Origin: a virus | DNA: 64,000 nt | Direction: 5' to 3' (one strand) | IMG/VR virus record: IMGVR_UViG_3300035145_004174 | Location: 1 to 64,000 of that record | Shown: in pieces, positions 972 through 15,719 of the stretch | How positions within the stretch are numbered: the stretch's first letter is position 1 | Layout of the letters: every line of letters begins with the position of its first letter | Position numbers and translations under genes: made by a program | Notes under the pieces: generated by a model | Databases searched by the model: none | What the model was told of the DNA's origin: nothing | The model's input: the letters and a program-made list of their open reading frames with translations, nothing else

Positions 972-1862
972 ATGGAAGAAATTAAGATATGTTTTATTGA
1001 CGATTCCGTCTCTGTCGTAGGGGGGACCAGTTTAACTATCGATGCTATAGTTGAACCTAATATCAAGAACGTGGATTTCGTAAGCACTAGGGAATTCTCA
1101 CTTAAGAATCTATTTTCTGATTATGATTTTTTTATCTTAGGCAACCTGACTTCCTTTACTAAAAATTCTCTCGATGCAATTTTACACATGATGGAGCAGA
1201 AACCTTTTTGCAAGATAGAGTTTGATTATGGTTATTGCGAATATAGAGGAACGATACCGCATAAAATCATAGCGGGCGAAGATTGCTCCTGTCCTTTCGG
1301 AGATAGTGGAAATTTAGTTTTTTCTAAAATATATTCATTAGTCAAGAGTAATTCACTTCATACATTTTACATGTCTGGAGCTCAAATGAAAATTCATTCA
1401 AGACAATTAAACTGGGACGACCATACAAGAAAAAGTGTTCTTTCTTCTTGCTTTACTTCGGAAACTCTCTCATTATTCAAAGAACTTAAGAAAAAAAACA
1501 AAAACAACAAATATGCCATAATAGATGGTCAAGGAGGTTGGCACACACAAGCCAAAGGAATAAAAGAAAGCATAGAGTACGCAAAAGCCAATAATATTGA
1601 ATACGATCTAATAAAAACAGAAACACACAAAGAAATGCTTCACTTATTGTCTCAGTACAAAGGTTTAATATTCCTCCCTATAATAGAAGATACTTGCCCT
1701 AGGGTCACTATTGAGGCTAGATACATGGGATTGGATGTTATTACTAATAATAATTCACAACACATAAAAGAAGATTGGTGGAAAGCTGACGACTCTCACG
1801 CTTTTCATTTTACAAAATCTAGACCTAATTATTTCTGGAAAATTTTAAAATGTTTAAAATAG
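972..1862 (+). CDS. Putative GT-B glycosyltransferase
   Basis: First gene of a rightward glycan operon. The 296-residue protein is soluble. Near the C-terminus, FLPIIEDTCPRVTIEARYMG resembles the sugar-nucleotide-binding segment of GT4-type enzymes, with the E-x7-E pair seen there (E in IIEDTCP and in TIEAR). The N-terminal half has an alternating strand/helix pattern and several cysteines but no motif I can name. It overlaps the next gene by 13 bases. Its start lies directly after TATTATATA, with no Shine-Dalgarno sequence. Donor and acceptor are unknown; the glycosyltransferase call rests on the C-terminal motif and the neighbourhood. Confidence 0.6.
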   Translation: MEEIKICFIDDSVSVVGGTSLTIDAIVEPNIKNVDFVSTREFSLKNLFSDYDFFILGNLTSFTKNSLDAILHMMEQKPFCKIEFDYGYCEYRGTIPHKIIAGEDCSCPFGDSGNLVFSKIYSLVKSNSLHTFYMSGAQMKIHSRQLNWDDHTRKSVLSSCFTSETLSLFKELKKKNKNNKYAIIDGQGGWHTQAKGIKESIEYAKANNIEYDLIKTETHKEMLHLLSQYKGLIFLPIIEDTCPRVTIEARYMGLDVITNNNSQHIKEDWWKADDSHAFHFTKSRPNYFWKILKCLK

Positions 1863-2569
1863 TAATACCGTGCCACGGAAATAAATCTAATAATTTAGAA
1901 TCTCTTATTTCTAGCATAGAAAACCAAAAGCACTCTACCAAACTTGAGTATTATTTCTTAGAGGATCAAATAGACAAAGACTATAAGAATAAAATTACAG
2001 AATTTTGCAGTGGTTCTGAAAAAAGTTTTTTTATAGAAAATACTTACGGAACTAAGCTTTATGGAATTTATAATATTTATAGATTCTTATCAAGATTGAA
2101 TTCCGATTGTTTTATTGGGGTTATAGATTGCGACGACCACCTTTGGGGTAACGACTGCATTAGTAATATAAAATTAGAATACGATAAAGGGTTCGATTGT
2201 GTTTGGACTGCAAATGAACTGAAAGGTATTGGCGTTAATTTCTCTGGTCCTTTGGCTCATGATTGCGATGTATATTCCCACCCTTGGGTTTCAAGCCATT
2301 TCAAGACATTCAAACTTTCTGATTTCAAAAAAGTTCCTGAGTCTAATTTTAAAGATAAAGAGGGTAAATGGTTTGATTCTTGTTATGACCAAGCCTTAAT
2401 GTTGCCTATTTTGCATAATGTATTTAAGAGGGGTGGTACCACTAAATACATAAATAAAATTCATTATATATACAACGGAACATTAAACCCAGACGCGGAG
2501 TCAAAATACAGAATATCTCAACTTGAAAACGAGCACTTTATTAGATCTAGGGGGTATTTGAATGAGTGA
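1850..2569 (+). CDS. GT2-like (GT-A fold) glycosyltransferase
   Basis: The N-terminus KIVIPCHGNKSNNLESLISS matches the nucleotide-binding opening of GT2 enzymes, and FIGVIDCDDHLW around residues 89-100 gives the acidic DxD-type metal site. The 239-residue length fits a single GT-A catalytic domain. It overlaps its neighbours by 13 and 8 bases, so it is translationally coupled within the operon. It would transfer a sugar from a nucleotide donor onto the growing glycan in the cytoplasm; substrates cannot be read from sequence. Confidence 0.78.
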   Translation: MFKIVIPCHGNKSNNLESLISSIENQKHSTKLEYYFLEDQIDKDYKNKITEFCSGSEKSFFIENTYGTKLYGIYNIYRFLSRLNSDCFIGVIDCDDHLWGNDCISNIKLEYDKGFDCVWTANELKGIGVNFSGPLAHDCDVYSHPWVSSHFKTFKLSDFKKVPESNFKDKEGKWFDSCYDQALMLPILHNVFKRGGTTKYINKIHYIYNGTLNPDAESKYRISQLENEHFIRSRGYLNE

Positions 2570-3476
2570 TTTTTATATTAATAATTATTCAAATACAGAT
2601 GGGCCTTCTATATTTTCCAATCGCCTTAAAATTGAATTAGAAAACCAAGGTCATAAATTTAATGATCAATCGTACAATAGATTATTAATAACAAACGGAA
2701 ATATTGTAGAAAATAAATTTAATATACTAAGGCTTGATGGATTGTATCTAGACTCTGGTAATACACTTGGCCCGAATGAAGAGTTGAACCGACCTATCTT
2801 TGAATGTTACAAAAAATCTGACCATATTATTTTTCAATCAGAATACGCTCGTAATGTATACGAAGCTTTTACTGGTGAAAAAAAATCTAACTCTATTATC
2901 TATAACGGGGTAGAAGATATATTTTTTACAAATAATGAATCTATAGATAAGCCATATGGTTTTGAAAAAGTAGTTATAGCTTCGTCTAAATGGAGGAGGC
3001 ATAAAAGAATCGAAGAGTGTATTGAAGCTTTTAAGGACAAAAGATTAAAAGATGTTGCCCTAGTTATTCTTGGCGGTTATTCAAATGTAGATCTTCCAAA
3101 TGTTTTTAGTTTACCTATGATAAATCCTGTTGATTTACCCAGGTATTATAAAATGGCCGATGTGATGATTCACTTGTGTTGGTTAGATTGTTGCCCTAAT
3201 TCTGTCGTAGAAGCATTGGCTTGCGGAGTTCCTGTTGTTTGCAGTCACAATGGGGGAACAAATGAGTTAGTTAAACAAGATGGGGTGATATTAAAATTAG
3301 AAGAAGATTATGAATACGGATCTCTTGTTGATTTATATAATCCTCCTAAAGTTTCTATTGACTCTATTGTAGATGGAGTAATAAAATGCCTTGATATAAA
3401 ACAAATTAATCCTAGGTTAGATTTAAATATATCTAATACAGCAAAACAATACTCCAGTCTATTTAAAAATGAATAA
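2562..3476 (+). CDS. GT4 family glycosyltransferase
   Basis: A retaining GT-B enzyme. The linker motif IIYNGVEDIFF is the usual turn between the two Rossmann domains. The C-terminal domain carries VIASSKWRRHKRIEECIEAF and the donor-binding E-x7-E region SVVEALACGVPVVCSHNGGT. At 304 residues it is somewhat short for GT4, mainly in the N-terminal acceptor domain. It overlaps the preceding gene by 8 bases and the following methyltransferase by 8 bases. The family is clear; the sugar is unknown. Confidence 0.88.
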   Translation: MSDFYINNYSNTDGPSIFSNRLKIELENQGHKFNDQSYNRLLITNGNIVENKFNILRLDGLYLDSGNTLGPNEELNRPIFECYKKSDHIIFQSEYARNVYEAFTGEKKSNSIIYNGVEDIFFTNNESIDKPYGFEKVVIASSKWRRHKRIEECIEAFKDKRLKDVALVILGGYSNVDLPNVFSLPMINPVDLPRYYKMADVMIHLCWLDCCPNSVVEALACGVPVVCSHNGGTNELVKQDGVILKLEEDYEYGSLVDLYNPPKVSIDSIVDGVIKCLDIKQINPRLDLNISNTAKQYSSLFKNE

Positions 3477-4293
3477 TATAGAATTTTTCTTTCAACACTT
3501 GTGTGAATACTATAACGTAACTATCGAAGATGCTATAGATTTATCAACCAGAAAAACTGGTAGAAAGCCTAGTTTACCTGGATCAAAAACATGCGACCCT
3601 GTCTCTGGAATGAATCTTGAAGAAATTTGGGATTCACAAGAAAGAGATTCGGAAGAATCTATTTTTAAATTTTACAAAGATCAAGGAGCTTGGAGTGCAT
3701 TCAGGCAATGCATGAGACTATCTCAAGCTGTCGGTGCATACCAGAATTACCTATTAAATGTAATTGAAAGATTGGATACTCAATTTAAAATCGGAAGAAC
3801 TGTTTCTATATGTGAATATGGATGTGGGACTGCCCCATTCGGATTCCTTCTTCTCAACCTATTAAAACCAGATATTAAAATTAATTTTTATATATCGGAT
3901 GTTGACTGCGAGCATTTAAACTTTGGAGAATGGAGGTTGAATCAAATCAAGAAGCATAGAAAACTAGAAAATGTAAAAATTATAAAAAAGCTCGTCGAAC
4001 CTAATTCCTTGCCGACTTATGAAGATAAATTGGATGCTGTATTTATATTTGAAGTCTTAGAGCATGTCCCCAGCCCAATTGCCACAACATTAAATTTAAT
4101 AAACCAAATAAACTCTGGCGGGTTCTTTATAGAAAATTTCATAAAGCATGAAGATGAAAAAGGGCGTTGCGACCTACCTTCCTCCCAAAAAGAAAGGTCT
4201 GAATGTCTTGAATATTTAGATAAAAATCTTAATTTGTTCATGGGAGAGACTGAAAGTAAATCTCCAAATGGAACTAGAATTTGGATGAAGTAA
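3469..4293 (+). CDS. SAM-dependent methyltransferase
   Basis: A class I methyltransferase. ICEYGCGTAPFGFLLLNLL at about residues 117-135 is the glycine-rich SAM loop, followed by YISDVD (the acidic residue that holds the ribose) and AVFIFEVLEHVPSP, typical of small-molecule or sugar O-methyltransferases. The first ~110 residues form an additional helical region rich in charged residues. It sits between two glycosyltransferase genes and ends in TAATG, sharing one base with the next start. It probably methylates a sugar or an intermediate of the operon's glycan. Confidence 0.8.
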   Translation: MNNIEFFFQHLCEYYNVTIEDAIDLSTRKTGRKPSLPGSKTCDPVSGMNLEEIWDSQERDSEESIFKFYKDQGAWSAFRQCMRLSQAVGAYQNYLLNVIERLDTQFKIGRTVSICEYGCGTAPFGFLLLNLLKPDIKINFYISDVDCEHLNFGEWRLNQIKKHRKLENVKIIKKLVEPNSLPTYEDKLDAVFIFEVLEHVPSPIATTLNLINQINSGGFFIENFIKHEDEKGRCDLPSSQKERSECLEYLDKNLNLFMGETESKSPNGTRIWMK

Positions 4294-5216
4294 TGATTTT
4301 CTATTTTAATAGAATACCACTGAACTCTCCATGGGGAGGAGGTAATCAATTTTTGCAATCAATGATTGATTTTTTTAAAATAAAAGGTCACACCGTAGTC
4401 CACGACCTAGTTCCAAACATTGACTGGATATTCACAATCGACCCTAGGCCTAGAGAGCAAGGAGTGGGAATTAACGAAATTCATAATTACAAATTAAAAA
4501 ACCCTAATGTTAAAATTTTTTATAGGGTTAATGAATGTGATAAAAGAAAAAATACACATGGAATGGATGAGCTGATATATCATATGGTTTCCATTTCAGA
4601 TAAGGTTGTTTTTATTAGTGACTGGCTTAAAAAATATTTTTTTAGATTGGGAGTAAATAAAGAATCTCATGTAATTACAAATGGATGTAATCATGATCAT
4701 TTTTACCCTAAAGACCATTCTGGGTTTACAGAAAAAATAAAATTAGTAACTCACCACTGGTCAGATAACTGGTTAAAAGGTTTTGATATTTATCAAAAAA
4801 TAGACGAATATATCTCAAATAACCCAGAATGCCCCTTTGATTTCTACTACATAGGAAATCATAATAATTCGTACAAACCAAATTCTACTAAATTAATAAG
4901 TCCAACATGTGGCAAAGAATTAGGAGATTTATTGCGCCAATTTGATCTTTATGTTACTGCTAGCAGATGGGAGCCTGGAGGAATGCATCATATAGAAGCT
5001 GCATCCTGCGGCTTGCCTATTCTTTATCATAAGGATGGCGGAGGAATAAATGAATTAGCAAGTTTACACGGAGAAGAGTTTGGTGATTTCGAAGAGTTTT
5101 TATATAAATTCAATATTTTAAAATCTAATTATCTAAAATATCGCAACGAAATAAATTATAATAATTTATCTTCATATACTTGTTGTGAAAAATTTTACAA
5201 TTTAATTTGTAATTAA
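4293..5216 (+). CDS. GT4-like glycosyltransferase
   Basis: A GT-B enzyme of 307 residues. VITNGCNHDHFYPK is the interdomain motif; SRWEPGGMHHIEAASCGLPI with the following GGGINEL is the donor-binding region. The start at 4293 is preferred over an ATG 12 bases upstream because it forms the TAATG stop/start overlap seen repeatedly in this genome, and the protein then begins with the expected strand MIFYFNRIPLNSPWGGG. A histidine replaces part of the usual E-x7-E. The substrate is unknown. Confidence 0.84.
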   Translation: MIFYFNRIPLNSPWGGGNQFLQSMIDFFKIKGHTVVHDLVPNIDWIFTIDPRPREQGVGINEIHNYKLKNPNVKIFYRVNECDKRKNTHGMDELIYHMVSISDKVVFISDWLKKYFFRLGVNKESHVITNGCNHDHFYPKDHSGFTEKIKLVTHHWSDNWLKGFDIYQKIDEYISNNPECPFDFYYIGNHNNSYKPNSTKLISPTCGKELGDLLRQFDLYVTASRWEPGGMHHIEAASCGLPILYHKDGGGINELASLHGEEFGDFEEFLYKFNILKSNYLKYRNEINYNNLSSYTCCEKFYNLICN

Positions 5217-5227
5217 ATTTTCAAGCT

Positions 5228-6034
5228 ATGGGAATGGGAGGGCATTTAATGTGGACTGCGGTTGCAAGAAACATTCGCAATCACACAGATAAAATATGTG
5301 TCCCACTTGAGGGTCACAATTTTTGCAAAAGTGATATATTTTATAATAACCCAAATTTTTCATATAATGGAGATTTTTTATTAGACCTATCCTTACCTCA
5401 AACGAACTACATAAAAGAAGATGGTGCTGTTGTAAAATTTGCTTGCCCCAAAAAACATGCCATAGTTCATGCCCTCAATTTTTATGGCATACATAACAAT
5501 GTAGATTTAAAATGTGAATTATTTTTAACTAAAGAAGAAGATTTGATCTCCCAAAGTGTCACATCAAACCTTCCTAAAAAATATGCATGCATTGAACCTC
5601 ATTCCAAAACAAGCTGGATGCAGTCTAGGCTGTATTCTTTTGAGAAATATCAAAATGTAGTAAATGCTTTGAAAGATCAAATAACCTTTGTTCAGATAGG
5701 GGCTAAAGGTGCCCCACGATTAGATAATGTAATATATATTAACGGATTATTAAGTTTTAGGCAGACTTACAATGTACTTAAAAATTCTAATTTCTTTTTG
5801 TCTACCGAAGGAGGGTTGGTTCATTTATCTAACAGTGCTGGCACCAGATCTTTTGTTATTTACACTAGTTATCAATTTCCAGAAATGACAATGTATCCAG
5901 ATAATTTTTTGATAGATATATCTTTATATAGGAATCAAATATTAGGCCACAAAAACAACCCTTTGTATTTAGACGAAATAGAAAAGCACGACGAGAATTC
6001 TATTATAGATTTAATTCAAAAAGAGAAGCTATGA
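5228..6034 (+). CDS. GT9-like (heptosyltransferase fold) glycosyltransferase
   Basis: The protein begins directly with the glycine loop MGMGGHLMWTAVARNI, which in GT9 enzymes follows a first strand that is missing here. An in-frame stop upstream shows that no longer reading is possible. The C-terminal half has the hallmark FFLSTEGGLVHLSNSAGTRS, corresponding to the D/E-x-G-x2-H-x-A segment of ADP-heptose transferases. At 268 residues it is shorter than typical (~330). It is probably a cytoplasmic glycosyltransferase; the truncated first strand makes activity less certain. Confidence 0.68.
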   Translation: MGMGGHLMWTAVARNIRNHTDKICVPLEGHNFCKSDIFYNNPNFSYNGDFLLDLSLPQTNYIKEDGAVVKFACPKKHAIVHALNFYGIHNNVDLKCELFLTKEEDLISQSVTSNLPKKYACIEPHSKTSWMQSRLYSFEKYQNVVNALKDQITFVQIGAKGAPRLDNVIYINGLLSFRQTYNVLKNSNFFLSTEGGLVHLSNSAGTRSFVIYTSYQFPEMTMYPDNFLIDISLYRNQILGHKNNPLYLDEIEKHDENSIIDLIQKEKL

Positions 6035-6972
6035 ATTTTATTTTAAGACAAATGTCTCATATTAGATATATGATCCCCTTAATTATTGAAGGTAATTATA
6101 GAGGTATAAAATCAACTATTTATTGGCAGTCCTGTGGTAAATACAATTCACCACATCTATATGTAGATGTTTTAAAAAATTTATCAAAAAAGTTTTGCTT
6201 CACTTTAATTAATTCTGACTCAGGAAACTTAAATGGAATAACTTTTAATGTAGAAGGAGATGGCATAGGAAATTTTCAAACAGAAAAGTTGGTAATACTG
6301 ACTAACATGACTGATTTCCATATTGGTCATAAAAGATATTGGGACAAAATAGATAAGTGCATTTTCCCTTCTAAATATTTTGCTTCTTTAGCGGGAAGAG
6401 AACTTGATTCTAAATCTCTTTTTTTAGGTAGCCCTAAATACGATGTAACTTTAGACAAAAAAGATATTTATAAAAAATATAATCTTAATGAAGATTATAA
6501 ATATGCATTTATGCCTCTTCCAAGAGCAAGGGATTATCATAATATGAATATAAATAATTTATGTTCCTTAATTAAGGATATGGGGTATAAAGTTATAACC
6601 AAAACCAGAGGAAAAGATAACTGCTCAGCTAAATCCGACCTTCATTTGGTTGACTTTTCGTGGTATCCCCATGACAGTATGGAGCTTATGTCCGTTTCAG
6701 ATTTCGTAATTAACTTTGATTCGACTTCAATAAAAGAATGTATAAAATTAAAAAAGAAAGTATTGAACTACAACATAAAACCTTTTCAGCAATTATTGCC
6801 AGTTTTCTATGAATCAAAATCAGTACTAAACGTTAAAAAAGATTTTGATCTAAACAATGAGCTTAGAATTAAAAAACTCCTTGAGTCTCCTTACGATTTT
6901 GATTACTATATAGATCAGTATTTGTTTACAGGGAATTCGTCCAAAAGAATTATAGATTATTTTTTTAAATGA
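6031..6972 (+). CDS. Putative GT-B transferase, CDP-glycerol/epimerase-like
   Basis: A 313-residue protein whose C-terminal half contains MSVSDFVINFDSTSIKECIK followed by LKKKVLNY. This is the pattern of the UDP-GlcNAc 2-epimerase / CDP-glycerol-phosphotransferase type of GT-B fold, where an S/T-rich loop binds the donor phosphates. The N-terminal half is less recognisable. It overlaps both neighbours with ATGA junctions, so it is clearly part of the operon. It could be a transferase or an epimerase; I favour a transferase because no matching N-terminal catalytic residues were found. Confidence 0.5.
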   Translation: MNFILRQMSHIRYMIPLIIEGNYRGIKSTIYWQSCGKYNSPHLYVDVLKNLSKKFCFTLINSDSGNLNGITFNVEGDGIGNFQTEKLVILTNMTDFHIGHKRYWDKIDKCIFPSKYFASLAGRELDSKSLFLGSPKYDVTLDKKDIYKKYNLNEDYKYAFMPLPRARDYHNMNINNLCSLIKDMGYKVITKTRGKDNCSAKSDLHLVDFSWYPHDSMELMSVSDFVINFDSTSIKECIKLKKKVLNYNIKPFQQLLPVFYESKSVLNVKKDFDLNNELRIKKLLESPYDFDYYIDQYLFTGNSSKRIIDYFFK

Positions 6973-7550
6973 AAATTAACGTTATTATTCCAGCCAGAGG
7001 TGGCAGCAAAAGGCTTTTGAATAAAAACATACATCCTGTTTGGGGCAAGCCTATGATATACTGGGCTATAAAATCTGCTTTAAATTTAAACAAATGGCAC
7101 GAAACCAAAGTTTGGGTAAGCTCTGATAGTTTAGAAATATTAGATGTCGCAAAAGAATTTGGAGCTAATACTATATTAAGGTCGAAGAATCTTTCTGGAG
7201 ACTTGGTCTTTAAGCAGGCTGCCATAAGAAATGCAGCATTGGATATTTCCAAAACAGACCCGAGCGACTTATGGGTATCCTTGCAGGCTAACTCTCCAGA
7301 AATTTCTGAAGTACATCTTAAGCAAGCTATTGATGTATTAGTAGAAAATGAAAGAGATGAGATATTTTCTGTTGACTCTAATTTTATGCAGAATGCAGCG
7401 TTTAGAATATTTAAGGGGGGTTATGTCTTTCAAGAAGATTTAAGTACAAATTGTGGGGTAATAGTTTGCGATATCCAAGATGTTCATACAATAGATGATA
7501 TTAAGTTTATAGAATCAAAACCGTCAACAAGAATAATTAATTGGTCGTAA
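6969..7550 (+). CDS. neuA: CMP-nonulosonate (acylneuraminate) cytidylyltransferase
   Basis: Activates a sialic-acid-like sugar with CTP to the CMP-sugar. The nucleotide-binding signature IIPARGGSKRLLNKNI opens the protein, followed by the typical PMIYWAIKSA and VWVSSDS segments. At 193 residues it is a minimal version (~225 usual), with the dimerisation region shortened. Three genes downstream is the matching NeuB-like synthase, which supports a nonulosonic acid role. The gene starts in an ATGA overlap and ends in a TAATG overlap. Confidence 0.88.
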   Translation: MKINVIIPARGGSKRLLNKNIHPVWGKPMIYWAIKSALNLNKWHETKVWVSSDSLEILDVAKEFGANTILRSKNLSGDLVFKQAAIRNAALDISKTDPSDLWVSLQANSPEISEVHLKQAIDVLVENERDEIFSVDSNFMQNAAFRIFKGGYVFQEDLSTNCGVIVCDIQDVHTIDDIKFIESKPSTRIINWS

Positions 7551-8182
7551 TGAATAATAAAAAATCAAAATATTACTGGGGAAGTGATGTGGCACATGGA
7601 ACCTATCTCTATAATGATAAAAACTCATGGAAGGGTCTCCAACTTGAGTTTTTGTTCGAATTTATAAAAAATAATTTTAAGTTTTCTGATGGCACAAAGT
7701 GTCTTGATATTGGATGTAATGCTGGTCTTAATTTAAAAACATTCAAAGAGAAATATGATCATGTGGATAATAAGTATATTGGATTTGATTTGAACGATAC
7801 AGCACTAACTTTAGCTAGACAAAATCTGCCCGATGGCGAATTTAAAAAATGCAATTTTCTATTAGAGAATCCAATTAAGTCATATAGCGATGATTCTTTT
7901 GATATTTGTTTCTCAACATGGGTCTTAACACACCTTAATATTTCAGACGAAAGGGAAAATTTAATTAAGGATATGGTTCGAACATCGAAAAGAGGTATTA
8001 TCTACGAAGCATATGCAGAGAAGTGCGGCCTAGATTACCCTCCAAAATATTCGGAAAAAAGTAAGCCAGATAATTTTAATGTTGTGGTTTACGATGACTA
8101 TAGAAGGTATTCTAACTTAATTATGATTCACGAACTTCAATACGAAAATTGTTCCAAGTTATATTATTGGGATAAAACATGA
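7550..8182 (+). CDS. SAM-dependent methyltransferase
   Basis: A class I methyltransferase of 210 residues. CLDIGCNAGLNLKTFKEKY is the SAM-binding loop and YIGFDLNDTALTLAR holds the ribose-binding aspartate; SFDICFSTWVLTHL is motif IV-like. The ATG at 7550 shares one base with the stop of neuA (TAATG) and is chosen over a TTG nine bases upstream. Its place between neuA and neuB suggests methylation of the nonulosonic acid or a precursor, but this is inferred from position only. Confidence 0.8.
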   Translation: MNNKKSKYYWGSDVAHGTYLYNDKNSWKGLQLEFLFEFIKNNFKFSDGTKCLDIGCNAGLNLKTFKEKYDHVDNKYIGFDLNDTALTLARQNLPDGEFKKCNFLLENPIKSYSDDSFDICFSTWVLTHLNISDERENLIKDMVRTSKRGIIYEAYAEKCGLDYPPKYSEKSKPDNFNVVVYDDYRRYSNLIMIHELQYENCSKLYYWDKT

Positions 8183-8201
8183 GTTGATTTTAAAAAATAG
8201 T

Positions 8202-8903
8202 ATGTCAATATATATTATAAGTGAGTTATGCGGTCAATGGGGAGGATCTATTGACAAAGCAAAAAAAATGATAGATCAATCTGCTGATTGCGGGGCTGAT
8301 GCCGTTAAAGTTCAACTCTATGATACTTACAGGATGCCTGGAGAAAATAGACATAAATGGGAATACCTCTCTATGTCTAAAGATGTTTTCCTGGAATTAA
8401 AAGATTATTCTGAGGAAAAAGGTCTTGATTATTTTGCATCAGCTTTTCATGAAGATAGATTTCAATGGGTTTTAGATTCTGGATTGAAAACAAATAAAAT
8501 AGCTAGCATTCTTATTGAAAATGATTTTGATCTTTGCTCTAAAATGTTAGATTCTGGATTAAAAACTTATCTATCATTAGGAAAGTGGACAAAAAAATCC
8601 TTACCCTTTCATCAGCTCAACAATGTTGATTATTTGCATTGTGTTTGTAAATATCCACATTCAGTTAATGAAGCGAAAAAATTAATGCCTAAGCGCTTTG
8701 GCGACAGATTAGTAGGTTATAGCGATCATACAACAGGCATTGAATCATGTAAGCTTGCAATAGAAAGAGGGGCAACTGTAATTGAAAAACATTTTACATT
8801 AAATCGCAGCTCGCAATGTGATACTGAAAGTGCTCATATATGTTCAATGGACCACAAAGAGCTACTAGAATTAAGAAGTCATTGTGATACGAGATATAAA
8901 TAA
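8202..8903 (+). CDS. neuB: NeuB-like nonulosonic acid synthase, lacking SAF domain
   Basis: Condenses phosphoenolpyruvate with a C6 sugar to give a nine-carbon sialic-acid-type sugar. The TIM-barrel signatures are present: IISELCGQWGG at the start, ADAVKVQLYDT, DYFASAFHEDRF, LVGYSDHTTGIESCKLA and the C-terminal GATVIEKHFTLNR. The usual C-terminal SAF (antifreeze-like) domain is absent: the protein stops at 233 residues instead of ~340, soon after the barrel. The ATG at 8202 is preferred to an upstream TTG because it directly precedes the first barrel strand. In bacterial NeuB the SAF domain closes the active site of the partner subunit, so its loss is unusual. Confidence 0.87.
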   Translation: MSIYIISELCGQWGGSIDKAKKMIDQSADCGADAVKVQLYDTYRMPGENRHKWEYLSMSKDVFLELKDYSEEKGLDYFASAFHEDRFQWVLDSGLKTNKIASILIENDFDLCSKMLDSGLKTYLSLGKWTKKSLPFHQLNNVDYLHCVCKYPHSVNEAKKLMPKRFGDRLVGYSDHTTGIESCKLAIERGATVIEKHFTLNRSSQCDTESAHICSMDHKELLELRSHCDTRYK

Positions 8904-9567
8904 TATTTTAATAATAGCAGCTCATCAAGACGATGAAACTATAGGTTGCGGTGGGTCTATTAAAAAGTGGCATCTAGAAAATAAAACAATAAATTTAGTC
9001 TTATTTACGGACGGCAGCACAGGGATAGATCAACTAAATTTATATGATTCTATTACTGAGGTTAGAAATAAAGAATTGGATACAGTAAAAAGTATATTAG
9101 GCATAAATAAAGTCGTAACTTTAAATGAAAAATGTCAAAGTATTGAAAATAGCCAGAATACATTCCATAAAATAATTAAATTAATTAGAGAATATAAGCC
9201 CGACTTAATCATAACACATTCAAATATAGATAAACATAGAGACCATAGAACTATAAACGAAATAGTTACAGAAGCTTGCTGGAAGGCTCAGGAAAATATT
9301 CATCCTGAATTAGGCAAACAACATAAAATAAAAGACTTATGGGCATTTGAGGTAACAGATTTACTCCCTAAAGTAGATTATGTAGTAGACATCACAGACA
9401 CCTATCATTATAAAATTAAAGCTATGGATACCTATAACTCCCAGCATAACATAATGAAAGGAATTAATAACCATTTAAAAGGCATGGCATTATGTCGAGG
9501 TTATATGATAGAAAAAATGTATGGAGAGGCTTTTGTAAGGATATCAAAACAGCCAGTTATATTGTGA
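8884..9567 (+). CDS. PIG-L/LmbE-family N-acetyl sugar deacetylase
   Basis: A zinc-dependent deacetylase of 227 residues. The metal and catalytic motif AHQDDE (AHPDDE in the family) is at about residues 14-19, and the second metal motif HSNIDKHRDHR is in the middle. It would remove an acetyl group from an N-acetylated sugar. The start is a GTG 20 bases inside the end of neuB; no ATG lies between it and the essential motif. It overlaps the formyltransferase by four bases (GTGA), suggesting the freed amine is formylated next. Confidence 0.9.
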   Translation: MIRDINNILIIAAHQDDETIGCGGSIKKWHLENKTINLVLFTDGSTGIDQLNLYDSITEVRNKELDTVKSILGINKVVTLNEKCQSIENSQNTFHKIIKLIREYKPDLIITHSNIDKHRDHRTINEIVTEACWKAQENIHPELGKQHKIKDLWAFEVTDLLPKVDYVVDITDTYHYKIKAMDTYNSQHNIMKGINNHLKGMALCRGYMIEKMYGEAFVRISKQPVIL

Positions 9568-10265
9568 AAAATATAATAATAACCTCTACTCAACCTAGGC
9601 ATAATTATTATGCAGGTATGTTGTGTGAAAATATTAATATAGATTATATTATATGGGAGGATAAACCTGAATCGGGTGGAGTTTTTAAAGATTTTAACAA
9701 TAAAGAAAAGCTTAAATTTGATAAATATTTAGATTTTAAATTTAAATGCCCTCAATTAAATTTGAAAAAAGGCGAAATTAATAATCCCCCCACGATAGAT
9801 AGAATAAAAGATATAAACCCTGACATTATATTTGTTTTTGGTAGTAGTTTATTAAAACCAGAAGTTTTTAATCTGGCCAAAAAAGGCTGTATAAATATAC
9901 ACACAAGTTTAGTTCAATATTTCAGAGGGGTCGATAGTTCTTTTTGGGCAATTCATGATGAGCGGCCAGAAGCTATAGGAGCGACCCTTCATTTTATAAA
10001 CAATACTATAGACGCAGGGGACATAATAGACCAAAAACAAGCAAGCTTGTCTATAGATGACAATTTAGATGATCTATTTTTAAAATCATGCGAATGTGGG
10101 TTTAATATGTTATTAGATAATTTAAAAGATATCGTAAACCAAAAAACAAAAACAAAAAGTCTATCTAAGTTGGGAAAGTTATACACACTTAAAGATATGA
10201 ACAATCATGTAAAACAGATTGCCCAAGACAAAACATTTGACGTTCTAAAAAAATATATAAAATAA
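9564..10265 (+). CDS. Formyltransferase-fold enzyme, probable sugar N-formyltransferase
   Basis: Resembles the catalytic domain of methionyl-tRNA and sugar-nucleotide formyltransferases. GCINIHTSLVQYFRG contains the N-x-H catalytic core, and GATLHFINNTIDAGDII holds the conserved aspartate. At 233 residues only the catalytic domain is present, with no tRNA-binding or dehydrogenase module, which argues for a sugar substrate. The GTG start overlaps the deacetylase stop as GTGA. Transfer of formyl from N10-formyltetrahydrofolate to the amine exposed by the deacetylase is the simplest reading. Confidence 0.82.
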   Translation: MKNIIITSTQPRHNYYAGMLCENINIDYIIWEDKPESGGVFKDFNNKEKLKFDKYLDFKFKCPQLNLKKGEINNPPTIDRIKDINPDIIFVFGSSLLKPEVFNLAKKGCINIHTSLVQYFRGVDSSFWAIHDERPEAIGATLHFINNTIDAGDIIDQKQASLSIDDNLDDLFLKSCECGFNMLLDNLKDIVNQKTKTKSLSKLGKLYTLKDMNNHVKQIAQDKTFDVLKKYIK

Positions 10266-10272
10266 TTTATTT

Positions 10273-11046
10273 ATGAAAACCTCCTTGGTCGTCGGCATTA
10301 AAAATAGAACATCTCATTTTTTACAAACCTTTCCTTTCATGATATCTCAAATTGGTCAGGATTATGAGCTTGTAATAGTCGACTTTCATTCGGAGGATGA
10401 ACTTTTGCAATTGTTCCAAAAAGAATGTAGGCTTAGAAAAGATACGGTGTCAAAAAATTTAAAAGAAATAAAGTATGTTAAAGTAAATGAAAATTTAAAA
10501 TACAACCCAAATAAAGTAAAAAACTTAGGAGCAAAAATAAGTTCTGGTGAAAAAATTGCATTTACTGATGCTGATGTATTTTTATCAATGGACTATTTAT
10601 CTTTCTGGTCTAATAAAGTAAAAGAAAAAAAGACATTCCTGGCTACTAGATTTCAAGAAACTAGAGTTTCTTTAGCGAAAAGAATTTCGCCAGAGATTAA
10701 CTATGGAAACATAATCGTTTCTTCAAAAGATTTTTATGAAATTGGTGGTTGGAATGAATCAATGGTTAAATGGGGGGGCGACGACGATGACCTTTGCCAT
10801 AGATTAAAGCTATACGGTCTTAGAGAAATCAACCCAACAGACCCTCAAGATTCTAGACATTACTCAATATTACATGGGGATGATTTAAGACTAGCAGAAC
10901 TCGAAGTTCCAGAAAAACACAACGCTGACCCCGAATTGGGCGAAACAATATTCCAAAGAGTTTTTTCTAATACTAATTTTCTAAACAATAATAATTGTTT
11001 TTTTAAATATAAAAATTATAATATAACCACCATTAATTTTAATTAA
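10273..11046 (+). CDS. GT2-like glycosyltransferase
   Basis: A GT-A fold protein of 257 residues. It has an N-terminal SLVVGIKNRTSHFLQTFP strand, the metal site IAFTDADVFL, and the acceptor-side motif EIGGWNESMVKWGGDDDDLC, which matches the galactosyltransferase-type C-terminal segment of GT2 enzymes such as chondroitin polymerases. Seven bases separate it from the formyltransferase. It is a cytoplasmic glycan-assembly enzyme of unknown donor. Confidence 0.84.
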   Translation: MKTSLVVGIKNRTSHFLQTFPFMISQIGQDYELVIVDFHSEDELLQLFQKECRLRKDTVSKNLKEIKYVKVNENLKYNPNKVKNLGAKISSGEKIAFTDADVFLSMDYLSFWSNKVKEKKTFLATRFQETRVSLAKRISPEINYGNIIVSSKDFYEIGGWNESMVKWGGDDDDLCHRLKLYGLREINPTDPQDSRHYSILHGDDLRLAELEVPEKHNADPELGETIFQRVFSNTNFLNNNNCFFKYKNYNITTINFN

Positions 11047-11059
11047 AACCATCAATAAG

Positions 11060-11677
11060 ATGAATGCAGATGTTTCAATAGTAATTACTAATTACAATTA
11101 TTCTAAATACATACAAAGATGCTTAAGAAGCTGTATAAATCAGAAGTATGTAAATCATGATGTAATTGTTGTTGATGATTGCTCTACGGACAATTCTATA
11201 GAAAAACTTTCCCCCTTTCTTGAAGATATAAAACTTTACAAAACTGATCAGAATTCTGGAGTTGCTGCTGCTGCTAATTTGGGTGTAGAGAAATCAAAGT
11301 CTCAGTTTTTTATTCGCGTGGATGCTGATGATTTTATCACTAGTAATATGTGCTACATCATGAAAGAGTATCTTGAAGCTAATAATGATTGTTTTTGTGT
11401 GTCTTGCGACTACTATATGGTAAATAATGGAGAAGAAGTCGTTGAAAGAAAGTATGCCGAAGTAGATGATATATCTTGCGGAATTATGTACAGAAGAGAT
11501 TTGTTCTTAGATTTAGGTGGTTATAATCCTGATATGAGACACAAAGAAGAAAGAGAATTAAGAAAAAGATTAGGATTGGAATATAAAATAGATCATTTAA
11601 AAATTCCATTTTATAGATATAGAATGCATGATTCTAATAAAACTAAATCTAAAGAGTATGAACAAACAAAAGTATGA
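11060..11677 (+). CDS. GT2 family glycosyltransferase
   Basis: A classical short GT2 enzyme. VSIVITNYNYSKYIQRCLRS opens the nucleotide-binding fold, VIVVDDCSTDNS carries the uracil-contacting DD, GVAAAANLGVEKS is the helix that follows, and FIRVDADDFI is the DxD metal site. At 205 residues it has little beyond the catalytic core. It shares ATGA with a 41-codon reading frame after it. Confidence 0.88.
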   Translation: MNADVSIVITNYNYSKYIQRCLRSCINQKYVNHDVIVVDDCSTDNSIEKLSPFLEDIKLYKTDQNSGVAAAANLGVEKSKSQFFIRVDADDFITSNMCYIMKEYLEANNDCFCVSCDYYMVNNGEEVVERKYAEVDDISCGIMYRRDLFLDLGGYNPDMRHKEERELRKRLGLEYKIDHLKIPFYRYRMHDSNKTKSKEYEQTKV

Positions 11678-11799
11678 AAAAGGTTTTATTCGATTTAACA
11701 CAAAGTTCCAGTTGGGGAGATAAATCTCAAATGCTTTCCTGGATTTGCTGGTATAGCAAACAAGGTTGGCCCCTGGGAAGTAAATCTATCAAAACTTAA
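11674..11799 (+). CDS. Possible 41-residue peptide or gene remnant
   Basis: A short frame beginning at an ATG that overlaps the preceding stop (ATGA), the junction used throughout this operon. It starts MKKVLFDLTQSSSWGDKS and has three tryptophans before the stop, which looks like the opening strand of a larger enzyme rather than random sequence. It may be a real small protein or the leftover start of a glycosyltransferase deleted during module exchange. The 38 bases that follow before the dehydrogenase are A/T-rich without other features. Confidence 0.35.
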   Translation: MKKVLFDLTQSSSWGDKSQMLSWICWYSKQGWPLGSKSIKT

Positions 11800-11837
11800 A
11801 AAAAAAATAAATTAATACTAGATTTTATTTTATATAA

Positions 11838-12755
11838 ATGTATCATAAGGTAATGGATATAACACTAGGAGTCATAGGAAATGGATTTGTAGGATCAGCG
11901 GTGGTTCATGGCTTTAATCATTTTGTTAAAAGCGTTAAAGTTTTTGATAAAGATCAAAATAAAAGATCCCATTCTCTTCAAGAAACTTTAGGTCAAGATA
12001 TTGTATTTGTATGCCTTCCTACTCCAATGTCTCTTTCTGAAGATGGCAAGTGCGATCTTTCTATTCTTGAATCTTTTTTTTCTGAAGTTTCTGGCCTTTC
12101 CCCCGATTGTATTTTCGTAATAAAGTCTACTGTTCCAGTAGGAACAACTTCAATACTTCAAAAACAGTATGATAAATTAAAAATTTTACATTCTCCTGAG
12201 TTCCTTACCGCGAGAACATCTCTTTTAGATTTCATAACCCCCTCTAGGAATATAATAGGTTACCCAAAAGAGTTTTACTCTAACATGCATTCTATCCCTA
12301 ATAAAGTTGTGGAGCTTTTTGAAAAAAGATTTCCAGGAGTAAAAACATTATTAATGAATAGTGACTCTACAGAAATGATCAAGTATGTAGCTAATTGTTT
12401 TTTTGCCACTAAAATTAGTTATTTTAATGAAGTCAAATTGCTTTGCGATAAATTAGATTTAGACTATGAAGAAATTCTTGAAGGGGTTCTTTCTGATGGT
12501 AGGATTGGAATAAGTCACTATCAAGTCCCAGGGCATGATGGTAAACTCGGTTTTGGGGGAACATGCTTTCCTAAAGATATAAACTCTTTTATAAATTTAA
12601 TGAAGCTTAATGGGATAGACCCTAAAGTTCTTCAATCTGTTTGGGATAGGAATGTTTCAGTTAGACCAGAGAAGGATTGGGAGAAATTTTCAGCAGCTGT
12701 ATCTACGGGAACTGAGGAATTTGATTTATCTGGCTGTGGGCATGATCATATTTAA
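11838..12755 (+). CDS. UDP-glucose/GDP-mannose 6-dehydrogenase family, C-terminally truncated
   Basis: Oxidises a nucleotide sugar to its uronic acid in two NAD steps. The Rossmann motif GVIGNGFVGSAV, the segment VFVCLPTP, the conserved KSTVPVGTT, the helix STEMIKYVANCFFATKISYFNE, and the catalytic cysteine in GFGGTCFPKD are all present. The protein ends at 305 residues where the family continues to ~390-430, so the C-terminal nucleotide-sugar-binding domain is missing. The start may instead be the ATG at 11853, which places the first strand right at the N-terminus and has AAGG nearby. Confidence 0.88.
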   Translation: MYHKVMDITLGVIGNGFVGSAVVHGFNHFVKSVKVFDKDQNKRSHSLQETLGQDIVFVCLPTPMSLSEDGKCDLSILESFFSEVSGLSPDCIFVIKSTVPVGTTSILQKQYDKLKILHSPEFLTARTSLLDFITPSRNIIGYPKEFYSNMHSIPNKVVELFEKRFPGVKTLLMNSDSTEMIKYVANCFFATKISYFNEVKLLCDKLDLDYEEILEGVLSDGRIGISHYQVPGHDGKLGFGGTCFPKDINSFINLMKLNGIDPKVLQSVWDRNVSVRPEKDWEKFSAAVSTGTEEFDLSGCGHDHI

Positions 12756-12776
12756 TAAATAATTAAAACAAAAAAA

Positions 12777-13709
12777 ATGAAATATACAGTAATTGGAGGA
12801 GCTGGCTTTATAGGAAGCCATTTGGTTGATAAACTTTTAGATCTTGGACACGAAGTGGTTGTCTTGGATAATTTGTCTAGCGGTAAGGCTGAGAATGTTA
12901 ATAAAAGAGCTAAATTACACAGAGTTAATATAGAGCTTTTGGGAACTCCTCTTTCTGAAAAAATAGATGCATATAAAAATGCAATAATGGATGCCGCAGG
13001 TTCAGACGCCATTTTTCATTTAGCGGCTAAAGCCAGAGTTCAGCCTTCTATTGAAGACCCTGTTGGTTATAATAAACATAATGTAAATGGAACACTATCA
13101 GCTCTAGAACTTTGCAAAAATTTAGAGGTAAGAAGATTTATTTACAGTGCGAGTTCTTCTGCATATGGAGATGCTAGTGTTTTTCCTACTCCAGAAGATC
13201 ATCCCACGAATCCACAAAGCCCTTATGGATTACAAAAGCTTATAGGTGAAGAGTATTGTAAAGTTTATAGTAAATGCTACGGGATAGATACTGTATCTCT
13301 TAGATATTTTAATGTTTATGGAGACAGATTTTCCAGCGATGGTGACTACGCTTTAGTTTTGGCAATTTTTTTAAAACAAAAAATGTATAAAAAAGCTTTG
13401 ACTATTACTGGAGACGGAACTCAAAAAAGAGACTTTACTTTTGTCGGAGATGTTGTCAATGCAAATATTTTAGCTATGGAATCTTCTAATAAATTTAATG
13501 GAGATGTTATTAATATAGGTAATGGTGATAATGTTTCTATAAATGAAGTTGCGGATTTAATTGGGGGAGAAAAAAAATATATCGAAGCTAGGCAAGAACC
13601 TAAAGAAACTCTAGCTGACAGGTCTAAAGCTAAAGAGCTACTCGGGTGGGAGCCAAGCATGACACTACAGCAATGGATCCCTAAGTATCTTAAGCAAGAA
13701 GGTCTATAA
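12777..13709 (+). CDS. NAD-dependent sugar-nucleotide epimerase (extended SDR)
   Basis: An extended short-chain dehydrogenase of the UDP-glucose/UDP-GlcNAc 4-epimerase type. It has the NAD loop GGAGFIGSHLVDKL, the acidic VVLDNLSSG, the segment FHLAAKARVQPS, the catalytic serines of YSASSSAYGD and the YGLQK Tyr-Lys pair, followed by RYFNVYGDRF. Its 310-residue length is normal. The leader is A-rich (AAAACAAAAAAATG) without Shine-Dalgarno. With the dehydrogenase before it and the GDP-sugar enzymes after it, it supplies a precursor for the glycan. Confidence 0.9.
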   Translation: MKYTVIGGAGFIGSHLVDKLLDLGHEVVVLDNLSSGKAENVNKRAKLHRVNIELLGTPLSEKIDAYKNAIMDAAGSDAIFHLAAKARVQPSIEDPVGYNKHNVNGTLSALELCKNLEVRRFIYSASSSAYGDASVFPTPEDHPTNPQSPYGLQKLIGEEYCKVYSKCYGIDTVSLRYFNVYGDRFSSDGDYALVLAIFLKQKMYKKALTITGDGTQKRDFTFVGDVVNANILAMESSNKFNGDVINIGNGDNVSINEVADLIGGEKKYIEARQEPKETLADRSKAKELLGWEPSMTLQQWIPKYLKQEGL

Positions 13710-13723
13710 AAATTTTTTAATTT

Positions 13724-14785
13724 ATGAAAAAAATAATTATAACTGGAGTTACTGGTCAAGATGGTAGTCATATGGCCGATTTCTTAATCAAGAAGTTAGA
13801 GCTAGATTTAGATGACATAGATTTTAAAATTTATGGTGCTGTAAGGAGACTTAGTGTAAAGAATCATGAAAACATTCTCCACTTAGAAAATAATCCTTAT
13901 TTTGAATTGATCGATATGGATTTGAACGATGCTCATAGTATTAGAGATGTCATTATTGATATTCAGCCAGACTATTTTATTAATTTTGCTGCTCAGTCTT
14001 TCGTGGCTGGTAGTTGGAAATATCCCATACAGACCTGGGGCACTGATGCTGATGCCGTTTTACATATACTTGAATCTATAAGAAGATTCGCACCTTCTTG
14101 TCGTTTTTATAATGCTGGATCTTCTGAAGAATTTGGTGATGTCATTTATAGCCCTCAAGACCAAAAACATCCACTAAGGCCTCAATCTCCCTACGGAGCA
14201 GCCAAGTGTGCGGCTAGGCATATAGTCAGAGTCTATAGAGAATCTTATGATTTATATGCGGTTCAGGGTTGGCTGTTTAATCACGAAGGAGTTAGGAGAG
14301 GCTTGGACTTTGTAACTAGAAAAATTTCCTATAATGTAGCTAAGTTTAAAGTTGAATCAGATAAAAATTTAAAGACCACCCCTTTTCAGCTTGGAAACCT
14401 TGAAGCTCAAAGAGACTGGAGTGATGCTGAAGATTTTATGGATGGAGTTTGGCTTATGCTTAACCAAGAAAAACCAAAAAATTATGTGTTAGCTAGTGGG
14501 GAAATGCATACAATAAGAAGCTTTTTAGAAAAAACTTTAGATAGAGCCTCTATTGATTTTTATAAAACGGGATCAGGTTCTAATGAAAAATATTTCTGCA
14601 AAAAAACAAACAATTTGATAATGAATGTGGATGAAAAATTCTATAGACCAGCTGAGGTTCATGAGCTTTGCGGAGATCCATCTTCAGCGGAATCTGAATT
14701 AGGATGGGTAAGGAAAACTGACTTCACTGGTCTTGTTAATAAAATGTTTGATTCCGACTATTCCAAATTAAGTGAAAAAATCTGA
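13724..14785 (+). CDS. gmd: GDP-mannose 4,6-dehydratase
   Basis: First step from GDP-mannose to GDP-L-fucose, giving GDP-4-keto-6-deoxymannose. ITGVTGQDGSHMADFL is the NADP loop typical of this enzyme; INFAAQSFVAGSWKYP, FYNAGSSEEFGD, QSPYGAAKCAARHI (catalytic Tyr-Lys) and LFNHEGVRRGLDFVTRKI all match GMD signatures. Full length (353 aa). The next gene is the second enzyme of the same pathway, overlapping by 14 bases. Confidence 0.96.
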   Translation: MKKIIITGVTGQDGSHMADFLIKKLELDLDDIDFKIYGAVRRLSVKNHENILHLENNPYFELIDMDLNDAHSIRDVIIDIQPDYFINFAAQSFVAGSWKYPIQTWGTDADAVLHILESIRRFAPSCRFYNAGSSEEFGDVIYSPQDQKHPLRPQSPYGAAKCAARHIVRVYRESYDLYAVQGWLFNHEGVRRGLDFVTRKISYNVAKFKVESDKNLKTTPFQLGNLEAQRDWSDAEDFMDGVWLMLNQEKPKNYVLASGEMHTIRSFLEKTLDRASIDFYKTGSGSNEKYFCKKTNNLIMNVDEKFYRPAEVHELCGDPSSAESELGWVRKTDFTGLVNKMFDSDYSKLSEKI

Positions 14786-15719
14786 ATCTATCTTTGTGGC
14801 TGGCCACAAAGGAATGGTTGGTTCTGCTACCTTAAAAGAATTAAAGAGGCGTGGTTATAATAGTGTAATTACGGCTTCGAAAGAAGAATTAGATTTAAGA
14901 GATTATTCTGAAGTTAAGTCTTTTTTTGATAGATTTAATATAAAAAATGTAATTTTATGCGCTGCTAAGGTAGGAGGTATATTAGCAAACAATAATTATA
15001 GGGCAGATTTCATATCAGATAATCTTTCTATAGGGTCCAACATTGTAAAAGCTTGTCATGAATATTCTGTCTCAAAATTAATTAACCTTGGCTCTTCTTG
15101 CATATATCCTAAAGAAGCTGAAATACCTATAAAAGAAGAGAGTTTACTTACTGGGCTCCTAGAGTACACTAATGAGCCTTATGCTATAGCGAAGATAGCG
15201 ACTCTTAAAATGTGTCAAAGTTTTTACGATCAACATGGTTCTAACTTTTATTCTCTAATGCCTTGTAATCTTTATGGGATAAATGATAATTTTGACTTAA
15301 ACTCCTCTCATGTATTACCAGCTCTTATAAGGAAAGTTCATGAAGCCAAACAAAACAATTTAGATAATGTTATTTTGTGGGGAAGCGGTAAGCCTTTAAG
15401 AGAGTTTCTTTTTTCTGAAGATGTTGCTTCTGCTATAGTTTTCTGTTTGGAAAATGTAAATGCTGAAGATGTTTACTCTCAAGGGATTTCACACTTAAAC
15501 TGTGGTTCCGATGAAGAGTTATCTATAAAAGAGCTGATGCTCAAAATCAAAAAGATAATAGAATATGAAGGCGATATAATTCTTGACCCATCTAAACCCG
15601 ATGGAACTTTTAGAAAAAAAATGGACAACTCAAGAATCAAAAAGCTTGGATTTATTCCGCAAGTCAGCATGGATGAAGGCATTGCAAAAACCTATTCTTG
15701 GTATCTTGAAAATATGTAA
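14772..15719 (+). CDS. fcl: GDP-L-fucose synthase
   Basis: Epimerises and reduces GDP-4-keto-6-deoxymannose to GDP-L-fucose with NADPH. FVAGHKGMVGSATLKEL is the cofactor loop; CAAKVGGILANN, LGSSCIYPKEAEIPIKE, EPYAIAKIATLKMC (Tyr-Lys pair), MPCNLYGINDNFDLNSSHV and the C-terminal LREFLFSEDVA are all characteristic. It starts with GTG inside gmd and has normal length (315 aa). Last gene of the glycan operon; a candidate fucosyltransferase lies far away at 63271-64000. Confidence 0.96.
   Translation: MKKSESIFVAGHKGMVGSATLKELKRRGYNSVITASKEELDLRDYSEVKSFFDRFNIKNVILCAAKVGGILANNNYRADFISDNLSIGSNIVKACHEYSVSKLINLGSSCIYPKEAEIPIKEESLLTGLLEYTNEPYAIAKIATLKMCQSFYDQHGSNFYSLMPCNLYGINDNFDLNSSHVLPALIRKVHEAKQNNLDNVILWGSGKPLREFLFSEDVASAIVFCLENVNAEDVYSQGISHLNCGSDEELSIKELMLKIKKIIEYEGDIILDPSKPDGTFRKKMDNSRIKKLGFIPQVSMDEGIAKTYSWYLENM

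What the first reader, a model, noticed from the sequence alone, without database searches (positions are those of the whole stretch)
6969..10265. Nonulosonic acid module with deacetylase-formyltransferase pair
The order CMP-sugar synthetase, methyltransferase, NeuB-like synthase, PIG-L deacetylase, formyltransferase is compact and overlapping. The last two share GTGA. Deacetylation followed by formylation would replace N-acetyl by N-formyl on a sialic-acid-like sugar. I know of formylated sugars in bacterial O-antigens but not of such a phage-encoded nonulosonate swap.
Basis: partly seen in the sequence, partly recalled or inferred. Interest (0 to 1): 0.66.

Follow-up and report, generated by a model that had tools for sequence, protein, structure and literature searches.

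The report
Phage nonulosonic-acid island with acyl-swap cassette
A large lytic phage carries its own pair of enzymes for making and activating a sialic-acid-like sugar, followed by a deacetylase and a formyltransferase that recur together in several other phages and probably swap the sugar's acetyl group for a formyl group, altering the surface sugars the phage helps to build.

Summary
In detail: five overlapping genes at 6969-10265 encode a CMP-nonulosonate-type cytidylyltransferase, a methyltransferase, a NeuB-fold synthase, a PIG-L deacetylase and a formyltransferase (FMT), the last two sharing GTGA. Related viral contigs give 12 distinct lineages with cytidylyltransferase and NeuB. Five, window included, carry NeuB-PIG-L-FMT as direct neighbours; a sixth has NeuB-FMT. 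In 14 phage records PIG-L occurs nowhere else. The rest is modular: the slot between cytidylyltransferase and NeuB holds a methyltransferase, a PhyH dioxygenase, a radical-SAM protein or nothing. The island sits in unlike phage backbones. The phage NeuB lacks the SAF domain, including the arginine that senses the N-acetyl group, so it is not a standard NeuB/PseI. The closest bacterial PIG-L in one phylum sample lies between two formyltransferases inside a complete pseudaminic-acid operon. Exact substrate, position and order of steps remain inferred. N-formyl nonulosonates are known (Halorubrum, virus HRPV-1), as are phage-encoded nonulosonate-modifying enzymes (EpaA/EpaB). This is a new variant of a known kind. 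Mass-shift correction: acetyl to formyl is -14 Da, not +28.

The parts
6031..6972 (+). Putative GT-B transferase (TagF/CDP-glycerol-transferase-like), upstream neighbour of the cytidylyltransferase cassette in the phage relatives; candidate CMP-nonulosonate transferase
   Evidence: Homologue found in all 12 lineages, 33-50% identity. PF04464 matched by 3 of 12 members, best 4.8e-7; the window member itself has no Pfam match. Donor use is inference.
6969..7550 (+). Compact CMP-nonulosonate-type cytidylyltransferase (193 aa)
   Evidence: CTP_transf_3 3.8e-23; PseF best NCBIfam, 89.7 bits, below the 205.7 cut-off; AF2 pLDDT 89.6, top PDB matches all CMP-NulO synthetases ahead of KdsB
7550..8182 (+). 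SAM methyltransferase in the variable cargo slot
   Evidence: Methyltransf_11 5.7e-12; TIGR03587 Pse_Me-ase best NCBIfam, 37.8 bits, below the 112 cut-off. Slot holds other genes in relatives
8202..8903 (+). NeuB-type nonulosonate synthase, TIM barrel only, no SAF domain (233 aa)
   Evidence: NeuB 1.9e-31; AF2 pLDDT 89.4, top PDB 6ncs, PseI, NeuB; no PF08666 in the record
8884..9567 (+). PIG-L family de-N-acetylase (227 aa)
   Evidence: PF02585 7.6e-28; AAHxDDE and HRDH motifs invariant
9564..10265 (+). 10-formyl-THF-type sugar N-formyltransferase (233 aa)
   Evidence: PF00551 4.3e-13; best PDB ArnA, also WlaRD, VioF and PseJ; N111/H113/D150 invariant in six phage homologues
972..15719 (+). 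Surrounding glycan island: glycosyltransferases, methyltransferase, UDP-sugar dehydrogenase, epimerase, GDP-mannose dehydratase-like and GDP-fucose-synthase-like genes
   Evidence: homologous islands in L002, L004, L007-L017

Best explanation
This is a phage-borne nonulosonic acid (NulO) island with interchangeable decoration cassettes. The SAF-less NeuB condenses phosphoenolpyruvate with a host-supplied (or island-made) N-acyl hexosamine to give a NulO, and the cytidylyltransferase makes the CMP-NulO. PIG-L removes an N-acetyl group, most simply the one that starts as the HexNAc 2-acetamido and becomes N5, and the formyltransferase puts a formyl group from 10-formyl-tetrahydrofolate on the freed amine. 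The methyltransferase may add an O-methyl. A neighbouring TagF-like transferase and the other glycosyltransferases place the sugar on a glycan, most likely host surface polysaccharide during infection, possibly a virion glycoprotein. Shown by sequence or model: the families, intact PIG-L and FMT motifs, NulO-synthase and CMP-NulO-synthetase folds, conserved NeuB-PIG-L-FMT order across phages. Inferred: substrate, order of steps, acceptor and purpose (for example masking receptors against superinfection).
For: Folds and families. Catalytic residues kept: NeuB E8, Q38, F82, K99, Y151, S174, H176, E195 match NmNeuB Glu25, Gln55, Phe112, Lys129, Tyr186, Ser213, His215, Glu234 (alignment; residue list PMC6795526); PIG-L and FMT motifs. 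Order: NeuB-PIG-L-FMT in the window, L004, L009, L012, L014; FMT alone after NeuB in L013. Across 14 phage records PIG-L (6) and FMT (7) occur only there, one copy each. Over 12 distinct lineages PIG-L is in 5 of 6 with FMT and 0 of 6 without (Fisher two-sided p=0.015; lineages not fully independent). Cellular context: the best of 30 PIG-L loci from 395 genomes is FMT-PIG-L-FMT-PseI inside PseB-PseC-PseF-PseG/H (curated cut-offs passed for PseB, C, F, G, I and WbuX); another is PseB-PseC-PseF-Pse_Me-ase-PIG-L-PseG-PseI by family and order; the only strong match in 398 genomes of a second phylum lies near PseG- and NeuB-like genes. N-formyl NulO exists: 5-N-formyl-legionaminic acid (PMC6137143).
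Against: No biochemical data. Half of the NeuB+ lineages lack both PIG-L and FMT, so the swap is optional. Phage PIG-L form their own clade; their relation to the NulO-locus PIG-L clade against BshB-like PIG-L is not resolved, so the cellular operon is a contextual, not a proven genealogical, match. The window FMT is only 36-47% identical to other phage FMTs, and the cellular FMTs are distant (E 4e-11 and 3e-7). NeuB lacks the SAF domain with Arg314, which contacts the N-acetyl group and is essential in N. meningitidis (PMC6795526), so activity or acceptor may differ. No hydrolysing 2-epimerase and no DegT aminotransferase was found in the window record, so the acceptor would have to come from the host.
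Confidence: 0.6

Rival explanations
1. PIG-L and FMT work together, but on a different amino sugar of the same phage-built glycan (for example UDP- or lipid-linked GlcNAc/ManNAc), and lie beside NeuB only because the whole island is one glycan assembly line.
For: PIG-L enzymes classically act on GlcNAc conjugates; best NCBIfam relatives are BshB-type GlcN-malate deacetylases, below cut-off. The island makes several sugars. L013 carries a WecB-type epimerase above cut-off.
Against: In six of six PIG-L+ records it lies directly between NeuB and FMT, never elsewhere. Bacterial Pse operons also hold PIG-L, one of them with FMT.
Confidence: 0.22
2. The two enzymes do not form a swap: PIG-L leaves a free amine on one sugar while FMT formylates a 4-amino sugar made by an aminotransferase, as PseJ or ArnA-type enzymes do.
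For: FMT without PIG-L exists in L013, whose record holds a DegT aminotransferase. The PDB match list includes PseJ, ArnA, WlaRD and VioF.
Against: The window record and three other PIG-L/FMT records (G006, G010, G011) have no DegT aminotransferase (records may be incomplete). The DegT of L004 best matches RfbH, below cut-off. The GTGA overlap suggests coupled translation.
Confidence: 0.1
3. NeuB and the cytidylyltransferase are too trimmed to be active; the module is a relic or has another role.
For: SAF domain with essential Arg314 absent (PMC6795526); the cytidylyltransferase matches known enzymes by sequence only over its first ~140 residues.
Against: Open, conserved genes in 12 lineages at 53-71% identity to the window NeuB with catalytic residues kept; confident folds.
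Confidence: 0.05

Closest known systems
Pseudaminic acid biosynthesis (PseB-C-H-G-I-F), with bacterial PIG-L-containing Pse operons found here (L103, L104)
   Same: NeuB/PseI-type synthase, PseF-like cytidylyltransferase, PIG-L with formyltransferase (L103) or with methylase TIGR03587 (L104) in one operon
   Different: Phage has only the two late steps, a SAF-less synthase and short cytidylyltransferase; no PseC-type aminotransferase or 2-epimerase found in the window record
N-formyl-legionaminic acid pathway of Halorubrum sp. PV6 and the HRPV-1 virion glycan (PMC6137143)
   Same: NeuB-type and NeuA-type genes with a formyltransferase gene in one region; product is a 5-N-formyl NulO, also found on a virus
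   Different: Encoded by the archaeal host, not the virus; the paper text mentions no deacetylase
Phage-encoded EpaA/EpaB NulO 8-epimerisation in Acinetobacter prophages (PMC12053666)
   Same: Phage genes that alter a NulO of the host capsule
   Different: Acts on host-made Pse by epimerisation; no synthase, no N-acyl change; temperate phage
PseJ / ArnA / WlaRD / VioF sugar N-formyltransferases
   Same: Formyl_trans_N fold, N-H-D triad, 10-formyl-THF chemistry expected
   Different: These formylate amines made by aminotransferases (own knowledge); here a deacetylase appears to supply the amine. Equivalog cut-offs are not reached
NeuB of Leptospira borgpetersenii, PDB 6ncs
   Same: Best match in sequence (2.6e-24) and fold (1.3e-18); 290-residue chain
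   Different: 31% identical; phage enzyme about 50 residues shorter

Membership tests
NeuB/PseI nonulosonate synthase | NeuB TIM-barrel domain (PF03102) | tested here: met
   109.8 bits against cut-off 22.1; fold match to 6ncs, PseI, NeuB
NeuB/PseI nonulosonate synthase | C-terminal SAF/antifreeze-like domain with Arg314 | tested here: not met
   ORF ends after the barrel; no PF08666 match in the record or in three relatives
NeuB/PseI nonulosonate synthase | Equivalog score of NeuB_NnaB or PseI | tested here: not met
   111.9 of 399.65 and 91.6 of 340.25 bits
NeuB/PseI nonulosonate synthase | Active-site residues of the barrel | tested here: met
   Eight of the listed NmNeuB residues identical, Thr110 to Ser; Asn74 and Asn184 not kept
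CMP-nonulosonate synthetase (NeuA/PseF) | CTP_transf_3 domain and PARGGSK loop | tested here: met
   82.9 bits against 22.6; PARGGSK
CMP-nonulosonate synthetase (NeuA/PseF) | PseF equivalog score | tested here: not met
   89.7 of 205.7 bits
PIG-L de-N-acetylase | PF02585 with AHPDDE-type and HxxH metal motifs | tested here: met
   98 bits against 28.2; AAHQDDE and HRDH
Sugar N-formyltransferase | Formyl_trans_N with Asn-His-Asp triad | tested here: met
   49.9 bits against 26.1; N111, H113, D150
Pseudaminic-acid methylase TIGR03587 | Equivalog cut-off | tested here: not met
   37.8 of 112 bits
N-formyl-NulO pathway | Formyl-NulO product | not testable with these tools
   Needs enzymology or glycan mass spectrometry

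The most novel reading that the evidence does not exclude
Phages carry a mobile 'N-acyl editing' cassette that rewrites nonulosonic acids. A SAF-less NeuB that no longer reads the N-acetyl group accepts N-altered hexosamines; PIG-L and FMT exchange acetyl for formyl; and in most FMT+ phages an AsnB-type glutamine amidotransferase (5 of 6 FMT+ lineages, 0 of 6 FMT-) further converts the formamide to a formamidine or amidates the glycan, giving sugars not described in bacteria.
Probability: 0.12. Interest if true: 0.82.

Novelty: new variant of a known kind. Interest (0 to 1): 0.6.

Why it matters
If right, phages do not only modify host nonulosonic acids but make and chemically re-acylate them, with exchangeable decoration genes. 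That would explain part of the diversity of surface sugars that phages recognise, give compact enzymes for making N-formyl sialic-acid analogues, and point to an apparently undescribed deacetylase-formyltransferase branch inside bacterial pseudaminic-acid operons (no paper in the open library holds both 'pseudaminic acid' and 'PIG-L').

Tried and rejected
Searching viral contigs with the single PIG-L protein found no relative; the relatives came through NeuB and FMT. Searching viral and bacterial collections with the FMT profile found one phage and 46 bacterial FMT loci with no NeuB or PIG-L beside them by the phage profiles, so the FMT query did not reach the cellular operon; the PIG-L profile did. 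A missing SAF domain encoded elsewhere: none in four records. The idea that FMT-only L013 carries a NeuC/LegG hydrolase was rejected: its epimerase is WecB-type. The idea that phage PIG-L descends from the NulO-locus PIG-L was not supported. Collections of isolated phages hold only distant NeuB (25-28%), formyltransferase or PIG-L matches. The second-phylum search used a strict cut-off (1e-24), so it says nothing about weaker matches.
Full report
The window lies in a 101,071-base virus record, 28-39% GC per 2-kb step, with no tRNA found in the window. It carries rIIA, rIIB and a UvsX-like recombinase, a DnaB-like helicase and primase, and a DNA polymerase whose nearest annotated match is a Pol III alpha subunit, so it is most likely a large lytic tailed phage. 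The finding sits in a glycan island from about 972 to 15719.

Observation. The five genes are real and compact. Families are clear. Reading the bases: the upstream transferase and CTP gene share ATGA, CTP/MT share one base, NeuB/PIG-L overlap by 20 nt, PIG-L/FMT share GTGA at 9564-9567. Homologues fix the NeuB start at ATG 8202 and the FMT start at GTG 9564.

What the first two enzymes are. The NeuB protein is only the barrel: 233 aa. AlphaFold2 with 12 homologues gives pLDDT 89.4, and the first 12 PDB matches are NulO synthases or the related SpsE-type proteins. Eight barrel residues listed as catalytic-site residues of N. meningitidis NeuB are identical, but the SAF domain is absent and was not found elsewhere in this record. 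That domain carries Arg314, which contacts the N-acetyl of ManNAc; R314A is inactive (PMC6795526). So the phage enzyme works like a NeuB on fold and most active-site residues, but fails a defining feature of standard NeuB/PseI, and its acceptor cannot be read from family membership. The cytidylyltransferase model (pLDDT 89.6) matches CMP-NeuAc, CMP-Kdn and CMP-Pse synthetases ahead of KdsB.

Relatives. Scans of viral contigs with NeuB and FMT gave, with the window, 12 distinct lineages (two further contigs are near-copies). All keep a TagF-like gene upstream of the cytidylyltransferase, the cytidylyltransferase, NeuB, and a GT of the 11060 type downstream. Between CTP and NeuB lies a variable slot: methyltransferase (window), FkbM methyltransferase (L007), two methyltransferases (L012), PhyH dioxygenase (L004, L009), radical-SAM/SPASM protein (L008; by position and sequence start also L016), or nothing (L002, L010, L013, L017). 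In L004 the PhyH insert is flanked by an exact 33-base repeat of the NeuB 5' end, and in L014 the start of an FkbM gene remains in front of NeuB: traces of cassettes coming and going. After NeuB comes PIG-L-FMT (window, L004, L009, L012, L014), FMT only (L013), or neither. Whole-record searches of 14 records show PIG-L in 6, all between NeuB and FMT; FMT in 7; NeuB in all 14, one copy each. An AsnB-type amidotransferase is in 6 records, all FMT+; only the window lacks it among FMT+ records. The window's polymerase is shared at 63-84% with G001, G002 and G009 only; other island carriers have a distant (30-32%) or no detectable one, so the island appears to have spread between phage backbones, though some records are fragments. 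Within the window's own group all three states occur: PIG-L+FMT, FMT only, neither.

Cellular parallels. The PIG-L profile was run on 395 genomes of the phylum of a Flavobacteriaceae MAG. Of the 30 best loci, the first (L073, enlarged as L103) is FMT-PIG-L-FMT-PseI within an operon whose PseB, PseC, PseF, PseG and PseI pass their curated cut-offs, with a WbuX-type N-acetyl-sugar amidotransferase in the same locus. The twelfth (L084, enlarged as L104) is PseB-, PseC- and PseF-like genes, Pse_Me-ase (over cut-off), PIG-L, PseG-like, and PseI/NeuB-like with SAF. In 398 genomes of a second phylum, the only match at 1e-24 (L105/L106) lies near PseG- and NeuB-like genes; neighbouring FliS/FliD-like flagellar genes are my reading of the sequences. 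A tree keeps phage PIG-L, NulO-locus PIG-L and BshB-like PIG-L as three groups without resolving which two are sisters, so these operons show that bacteria also place PIG-L and FMT in NulO pathways; they do not show where the phage genes came from.

Mechanism. The amine at C4 of the hexosamine (N7 of the NulO) is made by an aminotransferase and can be formylated directly, as proposed for PseJ (own knowledge). The nitrogen at C2 (N5) starts as N-acetyl, so a 5-N-formyl NulO needs a deacetylation or an N-formyl precursor. No DegT aminotransferase was found in the window record, while it has PIG-L plus FMT. This fits an N5 acetyl-to-formyl exchange, the same product type as 5-N-formyl-legionaminic acid on Halorubrum S-layer and HRPV-1 VP4 (PMC6137143). 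It is inference: order of steps (before NeuB, on the NulO, or on CMP-NulO) is open.

What is known. Phage-encoded enzymes that change a NulO exist (EpaA/EpaB, PMC12053666). Formyltransferases occur in flagellin glycosylation islands (PMC5109656, PMC4875605). I found no paper in the open library that joins PIG-L and pseudaminic acid, and none of my ten searches surfaced a report of phage NeuB-PIG-L-FMT modules; most subscription journals were not searched.

Verdict. New variant of a known kind.

Noticed in passing
L004:7386-7418 and 8600-8632: Exact 33-base direct repeat of the NeuB 5' end flanks an inserted PhyH-type dioxygenase gene, suggesting recent cassette insertion by duplication of the target.
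   Followed up: yes
L014:6944-6994: The start of an FkbM methyltransferase gene (MKKVYFIDCGANIGQS) is fused in frame before NeuB, a likely deletion scar.
   Followed up: partly
L004:11556-13184; also G006, G008-G011: AsnB-type glutamine amidotransferase present in 5 of 6 FMT+ phage lineages and in none of the FMT- ones; the window lacks it. Function in the glycan pathway unexplained.
   Followed up: partly
6031-6972: TagF-like gene kept upstream of the cytidylyltransferase in all 12 lineages, without a Pfam match of its own; candidate NulO transferase.
   Followed up: partly
L103:983-3608: WbuX-type amidotransferase with HisH- and HisF-like genes in the same bacterial Pse locus as PIG-L and two formyltransferases, hinting at amidino derivatives.
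   Followed up: no
LR756508.1:322757-323512 and MH319754.1:87479-88192: Distant NeuB-like genes (25-26% identity) in an uncultured 484-kb phage and a single-cell marine virus.
   Followed up: no
13724-15719: GDP-mannose dehydratase-like and GDP-fucose-synthase-like genes in the same island: the phage may also make a GDP-deoxysugar.
   Followed up: no
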